This document shows, piece after piece, positions 55,802 to 64,000 of a DNA stretch of 64,000 nucleotides. The DNA comes from Scheffersomyces stipitis CBS 6054 (Eukaryota > Ascomycota > Pichiomycetes > Serinales > Debaryomycetaceae), in assembly GCF_000209165.1 (NCBI RefSeq), contig NC_009042.1, positions 1,364,001 to 1,428,000 of the forward strand. Reading direction: 5' to 3'. Positions within the stretch are counted from its first letter, which is position 1. Every line of letters starts with the position of its first letter. Below the pieces are notes generated by a model. The model had not been told where the DNA came from, did no database searches, and worked only from the letters and a program-made list of their open reading frames with translations. A program made the position numbers and the translations under genes.

Positions 55802-56707
55802 ATGGTGACTAGTATTACGACCTTATCCAGTTCGTACTCTACGCATCTCCCTTCAAGTGCCAAGCAGCAGGAAATCATCGACAACTTAATCCGGTTGGCC
55901 AAAGAAGAACAGCAACGAGGTAATACTTCAGTGACTCTGGATAAAATTGCCCAGCTTACAACTTTCCTATCCCAACAAGCAGCTGCATCCACATCTGAAA
56001 AGAGTGAAGAAACTTCCAAGTATTCTAAATTCAAGAAACTCCCGGAGCTTCCCAAACCTAAGTTTTCTCCGCTTTTCGATAAGTTTGATCTTTCAAAGTC
56101 TGTCGAGCTTGTAAATCAATCGAAGATCAACACAGGAGATTCCGAGGCCAAAACACCCAAGAAGAAGGTCTATCGTGGTAGTCAGCGATTTTCATTCAAG
56201 CGATTTGAGAATATATTTGTAGAAGTATTAGAGACGCTAGCCAATATTCTTGACAATTTGCACTTGTTATCGAGTTTACCCATGTTTCCGAAAGTCTTGA
56301 CCAATATCTTGAAGCACACCAATAAGTTGTGGGTGCTTATTCTTGTCTTCTTGATACGTAAGACGATTTCGCAGTTGATGAATGTGATCAAAAAAGAGAG
56401 AAAAGTCAACATCGAATTGGAAATCGTCAACTGCAGGTCGGGGAAGTCTTCGCAGTACATCAACGAAGATATCAACAAAAAGTACAACAAGGTGTTGAAG
56501 GACTTGAGATTCGACAAGATGATGTTGATGATCGAGTTGGTGGGGAACTTCCTCGACTTTACGTTTAACTTTGTAGAGCTCTATGGCGTTCCAGTGCCTG
56601 ACTGGTTCATGAGCACGTTGAATGTTGCCAGCATGGCAATGACAATCTACAGAATGAACAAGGACGACGAATACATCGATGATGACATCACTGAAGATTT
56701 GATATAA
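55802..56707 (+). CDS. Putative peroxisomal membrane protein of the Pex11 family
   Basis: This 301-residue protein has a polar N-terminus (about 1-115). It is followed by an amphipathic/hydrophobic half with segments near 145-200 (LANILDNLHLLSSLPMFP...KLWVLILVFLIRKTI) and 235-290 (DKMMLMIELVGNFLDFTFNFVELYGVPVPDWFMSTLNVASMAMTIYRM). The layout of a W-containing helix, then a charged loop, then a final helix ending in a G/S-x-x-x-Y/R pattern resembles Pex11/Pex25-type peroxisome proliferators. The match is of pattern only, not of a diagnostic motif. Gene coding status is good (ATG, length, no competing frame). A CACGTG box lies upstream near 55648. Confidence 0.45.
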   Translation: MVTSITTLSSSYSTHLPSSAKQQEIIDNLIRLAKEEQQRGNTSVTLDKIAQLTTFLSQQAAASTSEKSEETSKYSKFKKLPELPKPKFSPLFDKFDLSKSVELVNQSKINTGDSEAKTPKKKVYRGSQRFSFKRFENIFVEVLETLANILDNLHLLSSLPMFPKVLTNILKHTNKLWVLILVFLIRKTISQLMNVIKKERKVNIELEIVNCRSGKSSQYINEDINKKYNKVLKDLRFDKMMLMIELVGNFLDFTFNFVELYGVPVPDWFMSTLNVASMAMTIYRMNKDDEYIDDDITEDLI

Positions 56708-57084: not shown

Positions 57085-59196
57085 ATGTCTATAGAGAGTT
57101 TAATAGCTTCGTACCAGAGGCGGTACGATGAGCTCGACGAAAATATAGCTTCCATAGCTCGTGGTGTCAACTTTGCCTCTCTTTCTAACAATCCCAGATT
57201 GGTTCAACAATTTCACGGCCCTAGCAATACTGAGAGCGAGAATGAAGAGCAAGAGGCCGACCTTTCAAAGCTCAGCATTGCGCAATTGAACCGGAAATAT
57301 GACGATGTCGACAATTACATTGTAGAATTGCAGAAAATAGAGTTGCTAAGCCGTAAACTCGACGAGATCAACGTGCTTCTTTCCAAAAAGAAATCTGTTA
57401 GTGACTTACTTGATTTTCAGCAACTTTTCACTCTCTTCAGGAGCGCAAAAGAGACTACCACAGCTGCAGCTTCGGCGAATGTTAACATAGTAATCTATAA
57501 GCATATCGCCAAATCAGTGGAGACGGCGTTTGCGCTATTTGTAGAACAATTGGAGGAATATTTGCGTTTTCTTTTGCCAGACGAATACACCATTGAAAAC
57601 ATCTCGATCTTGAATGAGTTCAATGCTCTTCTAGACAAGAATGCCACGAAGCTCGAATCGTATTCGAAATTGCGCTCCCAATGGGACTCCCTTGTCGACA
57701 AGTTGCTTTCACCCAAACATACAAAGTTCAAATTGACTCTTGTTGACGATAAATTTGCTGATTACGATTCGATTTCGCTTGTGTTGACAGAAGATGAAAC
57801 CAGTGTCACGGGATTCATTAAATCTGTACGGAACTTGCTCGAGTTTATCAATTTTCTTCAATTGGATACATTAAAGCATTACTTGAATTCGAAGATTTCG
57901 CTTTTGCTCATAAACAAGATTTCGGTCAATATCGATGGAATTGTCAATAATAAAGAAAGCATCGATGGCTTGAAGATTTTGGTCGACTACAGCACTTCAA
58001 CAAACTGGAATGTACTCGCTGGTTTACACAGCACAGATACAAAACTGATAGAGGAGAAGCTCAACAAGTTGCATTTAGACTGGATCATCGACAACTTCAT
58101 AAATGATATCAGAAAAGCGTTCAACTCCGAGTTGATAGAAAAGACTAAAGAATGGACCCATTCAATCGATACTTCCATCCAGTCAAAAGAATCGCAGAAT
58201 AAGAAATTCAAGGATACTCAAAAGGAATCACAAACAGATCCACAAAATGAAAAAGTAGAAGATGATGACGATGCATGGAACGAAGACTGGGACGATGCTT
58301 GGGATGAAGACGAACCCAAGACTGAAATAGCGACTGAGACAAAACCACAAGCTGGAACTGCAGCTGAAAGCAATGCTGAACAAGATTCAAATAAGAGCAT
58401 TATTGTAATCACTGAGTTACCAACTGAAGTGGAATCAATAGTAGAAAAGTACAGACAGCATTCACTGGATGTTTCGTATTTGATAAGTTCTGTCAAGGCT
58501 TTATCACTTCTGAAATATCCGCCTTTGTCCAGATCGTTTTTGCTTTTGAACGATATGACGTATTTGGCAAGTAGACTTGATTCACCAGAGTTGGTACGTT
58601 TTGCTGAATCCAACTGGAACCAGTATTTAGTCACATTTTACCAGGGACTCAAGAGTATATTGGGTTCGTTAAACTTGAGCGACTCCGATTCCAACGACGC
58701 TCAGGAAGACGATACTTATGGAGAACTTGACGACTACAATCTTAACCAGTTAAGTTTGATATATTCGTGGTTTGACACTCTTGTCCTGGAGACAGATTTG
58801 CAGCAGACCAACAACGAGCGGTTCAAGCAACTCATTATCCAGCTCGTAGAATTTGTAAACGCATGGTTGATACACAAGATATTGAGCTTTTTTGAGATCA
58901 CTGAAGGGCAATCAACGAAGATTGCCAACATCATCGACTCGCTCAACAACGTCACTGTTCCGTATGTAATGCAAATCGGCGAGAGCCAGGCCAACATCAA
59001 GTCGTACAACAAATTGAACAACTACAAGTTCTTGCTCAACAACCATTTGAAGGATATCATGGACCGGTTTTACCAGGGCGAGTTGTTTGATATGGAAACC
59101 GACGAGTTGATTAAGGTGATCAAGAGTGTGTTCATCCACAGCGAGCTACGTGATAACTACATCAACGAGATTATCGAGTTCAGAAACATGACTTAA
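57085..59196 (+). CDS. DSL1: Vesicle tethering factor Dsl1
   Basis: Dsl1 is the core subunit of the ER-resident Dsl1 tethering complex (with Tip20 and Sec39) that captures COPI vesicles. The 703-residue protein has an N-terminal coiled region (about 1-120) and helical tether domains. A Trp-bearing acidic loop follows at about 388-410, with Trp398, Trp402 and Trp406 spaced every four residues between Asp/Glu. This is the lasso that binds COPI coatomer subunits. The C-terminal domain has YVMQIGESQANIKSYNKLNNYKFLLNN. Length fits (754 in S. cerevisiae). The ATG gives a natural start. The acidic Trp motif plus length and C-terminus make the call good. Confidence 0.87.
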   Translation: MSIESLIASYQRRYDELDENIASIARGVNFASLSNNPRLVQQFHGPSNTESENEEQEADLSKLSIAQLNRKYDDVDNYIVELQKIELLSRKLDEINVLLSKKKSVSDLLDFQQLFTLFRSAKETTTAAASANVNIVIYKHIAKSVETAFALFVEQLEEYLRFLLPDEYTIENISILNEFNALLDKNATKLESYSKLRSQWDSLVDKLLSPKHTKFKLTLVDDKFADYDSISLVLTEDETSVTGFIKSVRNLLEFINFLQLDTLKHYLNSKISLLLINKISVNIDGIVNNKESIDGLKILVDYSTSTNWNVLAGLHSTDTKLIEEKLNKLHLDWIIDNFINDIRKAFNSELIEKTKEWTHSIDTSIQSKESQNKKFKDTQKESQTDPQNEKVEDDDDAWNEDWDDAWDEDEPKTEIATETKPQAGTAAESNAEQDSNKSIIVITELPTEVESIVEKYRQHSLDVSYLISSVKALSLLKYPPLSRSFLLLNDMTYLASRLDSPELVRFAESNWNQYLVTFYQGLKSILGSLNLSDSDSNDAQEDDTYGELDDYNLNQLSLIYSWFDTLVLETDLQQTNNERFKQLIIQLVEFVNAWLIHKILSFFEITEGQSTKIANIIDSLNNVTVPYVMQIGESQANIKSYNKLNNYKFLLNNHLKDIMDRFYQGELFDMETDELIKVIKSVFIHSELRDNYINEIIEFRNMT

Positions 59197-59411: not shown

Positions 59412-59636
59412 CTACTGGATGACCTTTCCGTCGTTGATCTTCTTTCCTGTCTTGGCGATAGTGTTGTAGACGGTATCGAAGTCGAGGGCGTCTGTAGTTG
59501 TTACGTCGACAGTCTGCTTCTCCAACGAAATGTCAATGTCAGAAACACCGTCCAATTTTTTCAATACTCTGTCAACAGCTCCGGAACAGCCGGAGCAGGA
59601 CATGGAAACGTCAAAGTGGTACTTGTGGCCAGACAT
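59412..59636 (-). CDS. ATX1: Copper metallochaperone Atx1
   Basis: Atx1 ferries Cu(I) from the cytosol to the Ccc2 P-type ATPase in the Golgi, which loads multicopper oxidases such as Fet3. The 74-residue protein has one HMA domain, a beta-alpha-beta fold around the copper motif MSCSGC (MxCxxC), and the conserved C-terminal KTGKK lysines that contact Ccc2. The longer upstream frame (to 59753) lacks similarity; the ATG at 59636 gives the expected length (73 in S. cerevisiae). Confidence 0.96.
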   Translation of the reverse strand: MSGHKYHFDVSMSCSGCSGAVDRVLKKLDGVSDIDISLEKQTVDVTTTDALDFDTVYNTIAKTGKKINDGKVIQ

Positions 59637-60149: not shown

Positions 60150-62261
60150 TCACCTTTGGCTTAGGATGCGGACAAATTCGCGTTTCGAATGCGTAGGATA
60201 GTTTTGGATCTTACTGATGAAATCGTGTAAACTCAATTTCTGGCGGCTAATGTAATCATCGATCACTAGCCCGATCTCAAATCTCCCACTGTCATAAATG
60301 GTGGATCCAGCTTGTGAAGAAGTAGCCCCACTTTCAGCCACTAAGTCATTCAAAAAGTCACTCACAACTTTTCTACTTGCATATAATTCATGATCACCAC
60401 TGTCTTGGATCCAGTCTAATCCCCATTTACGAACTCTTTCTTCTATTAATTGCCATTCTTCAATTATTTCAATTATAGTCGTGATCGCTCGGTTAATATG
60501 GAATTTGGGTGCAACCCTGGGTCTGGCATTTTCAATAGTACCATCTATAATGTCTGCCAATTTTGGTCCTTTTCTGAAAGTCTCTCGTGCAGAAGACTTC
60601 CTTTGACCAATTTCACCTTCGGTACTAGAAACTTCAACTATTTGATGCAAAACATCCAGCTTACGAATGATTGCATCATTATTGCGTTTTTGTGATTTTC
60701 CTCGTGTAGAATCATTCTCAATAACACTTTTGTTAGATTCATAACTTTCCAAAAATTCTTTAAGAACAGAGATATTTGGAATCTCTCGAGGATGGTTAAC
60801 ATCATGCTCACCATTAATCTGATGCAACCGGTTCAACCGGCTCAATATTTCTCTCATTTTCTTTACTGTAATGTTAGGATTATTAGGAATGATATCTTCA
60901 ATAAAAAATCTTTTTAGTATTTCCCCTCGAACATGGAAACTATCAAGTGATATTTTTGCACAGAATCGAACATATCTAGCTATTTCGGAACAGTACAACC
61001 TCTTGCTAGCCTCTGTAAGACCGTTTAGCAAAGTTGTATCTTCAAACAATATGTTCAATTTTGCCAATAGCTTACCTTCCAACTTGCTTTGAGGGGTATT
61101 AATCAATCCTTTTGAAACTGGATCATGATCTGATTCTGGACTTGGATCAGAGTTATTTCTCTTTCTTTTTAATGGCGAGAGTGTAGCTGACTCATTTTCT
61201 CCACCTGGTTCATTCTTCTCAACTTCTGCCAAAAATTCATTCATGACATCAACAAGATCACTTTCATGATAGGTATCATTGTAAGCAATGGCATTGAGTT
61301 GATTTAATTTAAGCAAGCTGCTTCTAAGATTTTTCAACCTTGCTAAGGCATATCCTGAGTTTTTATTTTGGACCTCATTAATGAGGTAGGATCTTAATAT
61401 GTCATTATTTAAAAGAAAGTTGTTCAACCCTTGACTAGCACAATATCTGATGAAGCGTCTTATGTCTGTGGAATAAGCCTTGAAGGTTTTTGCAGTCAAA
61501 CTGTTCAATATGTGACGGGTTTTATCTGAATTTGTTATTTCGTTGCTAAACTTCAGTATCAATTTAACTTCATTTTCTGACGTTTTCTTCTTTGTAGTTT
61601 CGCCTATCTTAACAATCTTGTCTTTTTTGACTTCCAAACTTTTTTGCTCTTCATTGGTTTCTACTGTGGACAGGGAAGCTTTCTCCTTCTCCTGGTTGTA
61701 ACTCTGAATCAATTCCTCAATTAAGTCATCACTTAAGAGCTCAAATGGCTGATCCAAAGGATAGACTATTCTGTTCATATGATAGAGTTTGTTCAAAGGC
61801 GATCTTATACTTTTGATGGTATTTTCACTGATTTGACCACGGCGACTGATTTCTGCTTGGATCAATTCTTTGGCCAATGCCTTGGTTACAAAGAAGTTAT
61901 CCAACCCCTTATTAGCGCAATGGCGTATATATCTTCTAATCTGGTAAAGGTACTTTTCCTGGGTTTCATTTCTTAGGTAGCTTAGGGTCTTCATTGCGGC
62001 TTCAGAGGACAACACCTCCTTGTCAAATTTAGAAAGAAGCTCTTTTTCTGCATCAGATCGCTTGCCAAATCTCGACAGAGTAGCCGGAATCGTGAACATA
62101 TGTTTTGCCAACTTTTCAACCATTGGGGTATTTGAAGCGGAGGCCGAAGTAGTTTTCTTAGGCGGCTGTTCTAGTGAGTTGGGTTGTCTAGCAACCTCGG
62201 ACGCCGGGGTAGAAGCTGGCATGCCTTCGGAGCTGGGATTGCTCTGCCTGTTTCTGGCCAT
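60150..62261 (-). CDS. Crypton/tyrosine-recombinase-derived DNA-binding protein with three tandem core-binding-like repeats and a Gcr1-like C-terminus
   Basis: The 703-residue protein (start ATG at 62261; an in-frame GTG at 62288 gives 9 more) contains three homologous ~100-residue repeats at about 89-190, 249-347 and 409-509. Each has the pattern Y-x-x-(Q/D/E)-I-x-R-(Y/F)-(I/V)-R-x-C-A-x-x-x-L-(D/N)-x-F. Each is followed by a helix ending LxxL(N/R)(K/Q/R)L. This layout matches the N-terminal helical core-binding domain of tyrosine recombinases (also in Crypton elements and Ndc10-like proteins). The catalytic R-H-R-Y domain is not seen. The C-terminus (about 579-681) looks like the GCR1_C/Hot1/Msn1 DNA-binding domain (IIEIIEEW...GLDWIQD...ELYASRKVVSDFL). 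Fungal Cryptons pair a recombinase with such a GCR1_C domain. A transcriptional or chromosomal role is inferred. Confidence 0.7.
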   Translation of the reverse strand: MARNRQSNPSSEGMPASTPASEVARQPNSLEQPPKKTTSASASNTPMVEKLAKHMFTIPATLSRFGKRSDAEKELLSKFDKEVLSSEAAMKTLSYLRNETQEKYLYQIRRYIRHCANKGLDNFFVTKALAKELIQAEISRRGQISENTIKSIRSPLNKLYHMNRIVYPLDQPFELLSDDLIEELIQSYNQEKEKASLSTVETNEEQKSLEVKKDKIVKIGETTKKKTSENEVKLILKFSNEITNSDKTRHILNSLTAKTFKAYSTDIRRFIRYCASQGLNNFLLNNDILRSYLINEVQNKNSGYALARLKNLRSSLLKLNQLNAIAYNDTYHESDLVDVMNEFLAEVEKNEPGGENESATLSPLKRKRNNSDPSPESDHDPVSKGLINTPQSKLEGKLLAKLNILFEDTTLLNGLTEASKRLYCSEIARYVRFCAKISLDSFHVRGEILKRFFIEDIIPNNPNITVKKMREILSRLNRLHQINGEHDVNHPREIPNISVLKEFLESYESNKSVIENDSTRGKSQKRNNDAIIRKLDVLHQIVEVSSTEGEIGQRKSSARETFRKGPKLADIIDGTIENARPRVAPKFHINRAITTIIEIIEEWQLIEERVRKWGLDWIQDSGDHELYASRKVVSDFLNDLVAESGATSSQAGSTIYDSGRFEIGLVIDDYISRQKLSLHDFISKIQNYPTHSKREFVRILSQR

Positions 62262-63564: not shown

Positions 63565-64000
63565 CTAAAGGACGAAATCGGAAATGCCGATGTTTGACTT
63601 GTCGCACATCTGCCTGAATATACCTCCGTCGGAGTTAAAAAGTTCCACGGGCGTACCAAATTCCTTAATTTCGCCTTTATCCAAGGTAAGGATTCTATCG
63701 TAGCTGAGAATTGTCTTCAACCTATGGGCAATACACAAAATCGTACAGTCAGCAAACTCCTTGGCGATTATGCTCTGGATCTTGCTATCCGTCTCGTAAT
63801 CCACGGATGATGTGGCTTCGTCTAAAATTAGAATCTTAGTATCTCTAACAAGTGCTCTAGCAAACGCGAGTAATTGTCTCTCACCCAAAGAGAAATTTGC
63901 GCCGTCGTCCTCCACATTCTGATATAAGTGAAATTTGGACAATTCCGCTCCCGAATTCTCTTCCTTGTTATATTCTGCCGCTTGGGCTATTTCTTCGTCA
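63565..64000 (-). CDS. YOR1: ABC transporter of the YOR1 type (ABCC), C-terminal fragment; start outside window
   Basis: The frame runs to the window end, so only the last ~144 residues are present. They cover the second nucleotide-binding domain: the ABC signature FSLGERQLL, Walker B ILILDEATSSVD, and the His-switch IAHRLKTI. The C-terminus with FGTPVELFNSDGGIFRQMCDKS resembles S. cerevisiae Yor1, a plasma-membrane multidrug (oligomycin) exporter, more than Ycf1 or Ste6. The symbol is by best recognition; family membership is certain. The gene is on the minus strand. Confidence 0.8.
   Translation of the reverse strand, partial: DEEIAQAAEYNKEENSGAELSKFHLYQNVEDDGANFSLGERQLLAFARALVRDTKILILDEATSSVDYETDSKIQSIIAKEFADCTILCIAHRLKTILSYDRILTLDKGEIKEFGTPVELFNSDGGIFRQMCDKSNIGISDFVL

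What the first reader, a model, noticed from the sequence alone, without database searches (positions are those of the whole stretch)
60150..62261. Protein with three tandem recombinase-type DNA-binding domains and a Gcr1-type C-terminus, no visible catalytic domain
Seen: three ~100-residue repeats share the block Y-x-x-(Q/D/E)-I-x-R-(Y/F)-(I/V)-R-x-C-A near residues 104-117, 263-276 and 423-436, and each continues with a matching helical tail. Known: core-binding domains of tyrosine recombinases, and fungal Crypton transposons, carry this fold, with Cryptons ending in a GCR1_C domain; both are DNA-binding. Inference: this is a domesticated mobile-element protein in which the DNA-binding part was triplicated after loss of the R-H-R-Y catalytic domain. 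It might read long or repeated target sites as a transcription factor or chromosome-structure protein.
Basis: partly seen in the sequence, partly recalled or inferred. Interest (0 to 1): 0.75.

Follow-up and report, generated by a model that had tools for sequence, protein, structure and literature searches.

The report
Yeast gene with tripled recombinase-derived domains
This yeast gene encodes a protein built from three copies of a domain that jumping-gene recombinases use to grip DNA, plus the DNA-binding tail of a known family of yeast regulators, and it has no detectable recombinase catalytic domain, so it is probably a tamed mobile-element protein now serving the cell.

Summary
Window 60150-62261 (minus) is one 703-residue frame (CTG=Ser; the yeast is Scheffersomyces stipitis). 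It holds three diverged repeats (residues 72-188, 231-345, 395-518), homologous far beyond chance, and a C-terminal GCR1_C domain. AlphaFold2 models of all three repeats match tyrosine-recombinase core-binding (CB) domains, Cre best; Pfam agrees (Phage_int_SAM_4 33.2 bits, cut-off 27; GCR1_C 30.6, cut-off 23). No catalytic domain is detectable: 65 mostly low-confidence residues separate the last CB from GCR1_C. Of 19 family members found, this one included, 17 have three CBs and two have two. A paralogous family (28 proteins, one in this genome) has one CB plus GCR1_C. Domains are conserved, linkers are not. Kojima and Jurka (2011) already report a Crypton-derived gene, Cdg1, in this species group; whether it is this gene or its paralogue I could not establish, and the passages I saw describe no CB array. 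Best reading: a host-fixed, non-catalytic DNA-binding regulator reading a composite site with several non-equivalent CB clamps plus GCR1_C. DNA binding and the Crypton origin of the CB part are inferred. New variant of a known kind.

The parts
60150..62261 (-). Complete ORF, 703 aa (P0001), CTG read as Ser at residues 62, 197, 236 and 535
   Evidence: homologues
61698..62048 (-). R1, first core-binding-type domain (residues 72-188); the most conserved part of the protein
61227..61571 (-). R2, second core-binding-type domain (residues 231-345)
60708..61079 (-). R3, third core-binding-type domain (residues 395-518); least conserved repeat
60513..60707 (-). Linker of 65 residues (519-583) where a recombinase would carry its catalytic domain; nearly all pLDDT under 50, poorly conserved
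60153..60512 (-). GCR1_C-type C-terminal domain (family profile 584-703; Pfam match 587-651), five predicted helices
   Evidence: PF12550 E 4.3e-07, 30.6 bits against cut-off 23

Best explanation
A single host gene encodes a non-catalytic, probably nuclear DNA-binding regulator assembled from pieces of a tyrosine-recombinase (most likely CryptonF) protein: three core-binding (CB) domains in tandem on flexible linkers and a GCR1_C tail, with the R-H-R-Y catalytic domain gone. Shown here: three repeats with predicted CB folds, the GCR1_C match, no detectable catalytic domain, conservation in related yeasts, and a one-CB paralogue family. Inferred: each CB lays two helices (the equivalents of Cre's B and D) on DNA as in Cre; because the three repeats differ from one another at those positions they are not interchangeable and read different pieces of one composite or long site; GCR1_C adds contacts; flexible linkers let the clamps wrap or bridge DNA; the output is transcriptional control, as for Gcr1, Hot1 and Msn1.
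Against: No DNA binding, localisation or expression is shown. No solved recombinase is matched by sequence alone: the repeat-profile search of the PDB gave Ndc10 (6gsa) last of 12 rows at E 1.7, below unrelated hits. Foldseek E-values are weak (0.046 at best for R1; 0.86 for the full model). R1 alone matches Pfam below the curated cut-off (19.2 bits), and the CB of the one-CB paralogue P0010 has no Pfam match at E up to 1: it is seen only with the family's own profile (3e-19). Profile alignment to the Cre N-domain is poor for R1, R2 and the pan-repeat profile, and R1 scored no better with Cre (0.2%) than with the unrelated phage protein Ref (0.7%). Net charge of the repeats is low (basic/acidic 18/17, 15/11, 18/18). 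R2 residues at the Cre-aligned positions vary between species. GCR1_C has no Pfam match in P0006 (family profile 9e-13).
Confidence: 0.66

Rival explanations
1. An architectural or chromosome-structure protein, Ndc10-like: the CB array bends, loops or coats DNA with little sequence preference, for example at centromeres or other repeats, rather than controlling particular promoters.
For: Ndc10 is itself named a Crypton-derived protein with a C-terminal region like CryptonF proteins (PMC3212892 passages) and is credited with non-specific DNA binding and a part in bending DNA in CBF3 (PMC6077249 passages). Several clamps on flexible linkers suit wrapping. Weak Ndc10_N matches (E 0.069 in P0001; 0.0012 in P0014).
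Against: No NDC10_II domain here, whereas a separate gene of this genome carries it (P0011). Ndc10_N scores stay below the curated cut-off. R1 is more conserved than a generic DNA-coating domain would seem to need (inference).
Confidence: 0.15
2. The CB repeats no longer bind DNA but act as protein-protein (oligomerisation) modules, with GCR1_C as the only DNA reader.
For: CB domains of recombinases also form subunit contacts (established knowledge); net charge of the repeats is low.
Against: Helices B and D of every repeat of P0001 keep 4-5 basic against 0-2 acidic residues. GCR1_C is less conserved than R1 and R2 (40% against 67% and 51%; R3 is equal at 40%) and has no Pfam match in P0006 while its three CBs are kept.
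Confidence: 0.13
3. A decaying mobile-element remnant (pseudogene or partial Crypton) with no host function.
For: The catalytic domain is absent and only one full-length copy was found.
Against: Open frame kept in Scheffersomyces, Candida, Lodderomyces and Spathaspora homologues with domains conserved and linkers not; ordinary gene neighbourhood.
Confidence: 0.02
4. A chance helical-bundle resemblance: the repeats are real but unrelated to recombinases.
Against: Independent sequence signal from Pfam, an unmixed top list of recombinase folds with a gap to unrelated ones, and the fusion with GCR1_C, the partner of the recombinase domain in CryptonF (PMC3212892).
Confidence: 0.04

Closest known systems
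Cdg1 (Crypton-derived gene 1; Kojima and Jurka 2011, PMC3212892)
   Same: A GCR1_C gene of the same species group, reported there in C. tropicalis, C. albicans, P. stipitis and P. guilliermondii.
   Different: [quoted passage not shown] none describes a CB array in Cdg1. Its Figure 3A (structures) was not visible to me. Which of the two S. stipitis CB + GCR1_C genes (or neither) is Cdg1 could not be established (the accession list is in a supplement that I could not open).
One-CB + GCR1_C paralogue family (P0010 in this genome, 'zonadhesin-like protein'; 28 proteins)
   Same: CB-type domain, long middle stretch, GCR1_C tail.
   Different: One CB instead of three; the CB of P0010 is not recognised by Pfam.
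Ndc10/Cbf2 and Gcr1
   Same: Fungal host proteins with recombinase-derived parts and a GCR1_C-type region (PMC3212892 passages).
   Different: Per those passages they retain a YR-like central portion with the catalytic site not preserved; no second or third CB is known to me (recalled).
ALOG domain proteins of plants (PMC3537659, start of abstract and passages)
   Same: DNA-binding domain of a tyrosine-recombinase element recruited as a regulator.
   Different: DIRS1-type source, plants; the word 'tandem' does not occur in the main text.
Cre recombinase N-terminal CB domain
   Same: Best solved fold match for R1, R2 (as its variant Tre) and R3.
   Different: Cre has one CB and an active catalytic domain (established knowledge).

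Membership tests
Tyrosine-recombinase core-binding (SAM-like) domain | Sequence match to a CB family over the curated cut-off | tested here: met
   PF13495 33.2 bits against 27 for the whole protein, 3 stretches; R1 alone 19.2 bits, below the cut-off
Tyrosine-recombinase core-binding (SAM-like) domain | CB helical fold | tested here: met
   [not shown]
Tyrosine-recombinase core-binding (SAM-like) domain | Binds DNA | not testable with these tools
   needs a binding assay
Active tyrosine recombinase / Crypton element | R-H-R-Y catalytic domain | tested here: not met
   No match to Phage_integrase, NDC10_II or DUF3504 in the protein at E up to 10 (filters drop most matches above 0.1); only 65 residues between R3 and GCR1_C
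Active tyrosine recombinase / Crypton element | Terminal direct repeats and several copies | tested here: inconclusive
   One full-length copy found in the genome; flanking repeats were not searched
GCR1_C (Gcr1/Hot1/Msn1-type) proteins | C-terminal GCR1_C domain over the cut-off | tested here: met
   PF12550 30.6 bits against 23
GCR1_C (Gcr1/Hot1/Msn1-type) proteins | Descent from a CryptonF protein | not tested
   No CryptonF sequence was at hand; in print for the GCR1_C domain in general (PMC3212892 passages)
Ndc10/Cbf2 | NDC10_II domain | tested here: not met
   no match in P0001; present in another gene, P0011
Ndc10/Cbf2 | Ndc10_N domain over the cut-off | tested here: not met
   13.8 bits against 23.8
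Cdg1 | Orthology to C. tropicalis XP_002548716 | tested here: inconclusive
   The accession could not be matched to any row; two candidate paralogues with CB + GCR1_C

The most novel reading that the evidence does not exclude
A tandem array of recombinase CB domains has become a modular DNA-reading unit, in the manner of zinc-finger arrays: each of the three clamps has its own specificity, together they recognise one long composite target, and the copy number (one, two, three) has varied in these yeasts.
Probability: 0.4. Interest if true: 0.75.

Novelty: new variant of a known kind. Interest (0 to 1): 0.5.

Why it matters
Domesticated recombinases are known to me as single units (Gcr1, Ndc10, ALOG; recalled). 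A conserved protein that keeps only the DNA-gripping part and multiplies it would show that the CB domain can be reused as a repeatable DNA-reading module. The series of one-, two- and three-CB relatives in yeasts makes the order of steps and the change in DNA specificity directly testable.

Tried and rejected
Chance repeats or a chance motif: rejected. Decayed catalytic domain hidden in the linker: rejected for P0001 (65 residues, low pLDDT). In the one-CB paralogue P0010 the 193-residue gap has no Pfam match at E up to 1 and reads as largely low-complexity by eye; it was not folded.

Sequence search of solved structures: nothing useful. Query alone, one row at E 0.05, a ciliary protein; repeat profile best E 0.063 to a helicase, Ndc10 last of 12 at 1.7. 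hhalign to the Cre N-domain: R1 0.2%, R2 1.3%, pan-repeat 0.8%, R3 38.1%; negative controls (Cre C-domain, Ref) 0.0 to 0.7%. 200 shuffled N-domains against the pan-repeat profile reached up to 4.1%, so that match is not above shuffles; R3 had no shuffle control. PHROGs gave only weak hits of unknown function (best E 0.01) and NCBIfam none.

Genome scan for PF13495, PF00589, PF21400 and DUF3504 in the own genome: 0 matches each. These are weak negatives: PF13495 missed the window's own protein, which hmmscan finds, and the DUF3504 search rang in no control. So I do not claim that the genome lacks active recombinases.

Which repeat is closest to the single CB of the paralogues: the full tree (79 repeats) puts R1 with them (97/87). 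After leaving out P0006 and P0007 as well and keeping 9 of 27 one-CB rows, support falls to 89/72 and neither R1+R2 (p-AU 0.284) nor R1+R3 (p-AU 0.297) is rejected. Unresolved. P0017 and P0050 were left out of both repeat trees because their hits were split.

Literature, seen as search listings unless said otherwise: no paper for CPAR2_205450. A search for GCR1_C alone gave two papers, PMC3212892 and one on neurons; searches gave no other paper on GCR1_C genes that I recognised among the rows listed. One search listed six papers on Ndc10 and recombinases; beyond PMC3212892 I looked at passages of two of them. One search (13 papers, 12 listed) showed none whose title or abstract start describes tandem CB domains; two searches gave none. 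Perriches and Singleton 2012 is not held. Absence is for these searches in the open-licence library only.

Full report
What is there. The frame 60150-62261 (minus) is a complete 703-residue ORF under the CTG=Ser code. The window lies in a 15.44 Mb genome of 8 contigs. The paralogue read from that genome, P0010, is 100% identical to a record named from Scheffersomyces stipitis CBS 6054 (Debaryomycetaceae), so the window is that yeast. The neighbours scanned are ordinary: a PEX11-type gene (55802-56707 +), a Dsl1-type trafficking gene (57085-59196 +), a small heavy-metal-associated-domain protein (59415-59636 -) and an ABC transporter running off the end (63565-63999 -).

The repeats are real. 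Pairwise repeat scores of 150, 119 and 152 stand against shuffle maxima of 60, 55 and 62. Profile-profile probabilities are 99.6, 97.9 and 98.4% against at most 1.3% for the GCR1_C control.

The tail and the missing part. GCR1_C matches at 30.6 bits, cut-off 23, and is over the cut-off in 18 of 19 family members. It is diverged compared with two other GCR1_C genes of the same genome (P0012 90.7 and P0013 85.9 bits), which I call Hot1/Msn1-type by inference; no call compared them with Hot1 or Msn1. Between R3 and the tail lie 65 residues, nearly all of pLDDT under 50. No catalytic-domain family matches the protein at E up to 10.

Relatives. Two homologue searches (about 8000 candidates scored each) gave 19 proteins of this family, the window's own included. 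Scanned with R1, R2, R3 and tail profiles built from nine of them, 17 of 19 have three CBs (P0017 counts as three: its R2 is split in two pieces) and P0008 and P0009 have two (R1 and R2). Eight other named members come from Scheffersomyces xylosifermentans, Lodderomyces beijingensis, Candida parapsilosis, C. maltosa, C. metapsilosis, C. viswanathii, C. verbasci and Spathaspora passalidarum; the other ten bear no species name. A search with the second S. stipitis gene (contig 7; P0010) gave 28 proteins, itself included, with one CB plus GCR1_C (P0050 counts as one, its weak hit is split). Public names already speak of a core-binding domain in P0003 ('Core-binding (CB) dom...') and probably P0023 ('Core-bi...'), both cut off in the output.

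History. R1, R2 and R3 each form one clade across species, so the three copies predate the sampled species. P0008 and P0009 sit inside the R1 and R2 clades next to P0006, with weak support (91/54 and 88/47), suggesting loss of R3. GCR1_C domains of the 19 family members form one clade (91/100), and those of one- and three-CB proteins together are separated from the two Hot1/Msn1-type domains by a strong branch (100/99); but the one-CB rows are not one clade there, the Ndc10-type gene lies on an unreliable branch (length 6.3) and the bootstrap had not settled. Whether three came from one or the paralogues lost two is unresolved.

Constraint and mechanism. Identity of P0001 to P0002-P0007 (P0006 left out for the tail) averages 67% in R1, 51% in R2, 40% in R3 and 40% in the tail; in the N-terminal tail and linkers the values run from 4 to 38%. 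All four domains are thus more constrained than the linkers, and R1 most. Positions aligned with Cre's DNA contacts (list recalled; alignment A3, with the hhalign register) differ between repeats in the five species compared: at Cre M44, R1 has K (5 of 5), R2 A (4 of 5, S in one) and R3 L (4 of 4); at Cre Q90, R1 has S (4 of 5, R in one), R2 N or S, R3 E (4 of 4); R2 also varies at K86 and T87, and R3 at R50. This suggests, without proving, that the three clamps are not equivalent. Helices B and D keep 4-5 basic against 0-2 acidic residues in each repeat of P0001. Hence the proposal of a composite-site DNA reader without catalysis. A working precedent is the phage protein YopR, a recombinase-fold repressor (function recalled; the fold match is row 25).

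Relation to the literature. Kojima and Jurka 2011 (PMC3212892, passages seen) report that Gcr1, Hot1/Msn1, Cbf2/Ndc10 and Cdg1 are CryptonF-derived, Cdg1 being present in P. stipitis and relatives, and that they found no Crypton insertion in Saccharomycotina. The supplement with accessions and the figures were not available to me, so Cdg1 may be this gene or its one-CB paralogue. The CB array and its variation in number were not found in the searches listed under Tried and rejected.

Verdict. A real, conserved, probably host-serving derivative of a recombinase; the architecture is a new variant of the known Crypton-derived gene class. Function is inferred.

Noticed in passing
G000:C7, L008:968-2752 (+): One-CB + GCR1_C paralogue (P0010), annotated 'zonadhesin-like protein' in public records; the name looks wrong.
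   Followed up: partly
G000:C5, L013:2316-4163 (+): P0011: an NDC10_II (recombinase-catalytic-like) protein with a sub-threshold GCR1_C-like tail and no CB match in Pfam: the complementary half of the split architecture, in a yeast family not known (recalled) for point centromeres.
   Followed up: partly
L009:1526-3244 and L010:1588-2781 (+): Two further GCR1_C genes of the same genome without a CB match in Pfam (Hot1/Msn1-type by inference).
   Followed up: partly
P0003, P0004, P0005, P0007: linker between R3 and GCR1_C: A conserved Ser/Gly-rich stretch (about GAxTxSGxSxSxSS, then VPPLFF in P0004 and P0007 or LPQL(N/H)F in P0003 and P0005) recurs in these homologues but not in S. stipitis; possible interaction or activation motif.
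   Followed up: no
P0006: Homologue that keeps three CBs while its GCR1_C is no longer recognised by Pfam (family profile still 9e-13).
   Followed up: no
G000: The genome scan with PF13495 found nothing although hmmscan finds this family in the window's own protein: six-frame scans by family can miss diverged members.
   Followed up: partly
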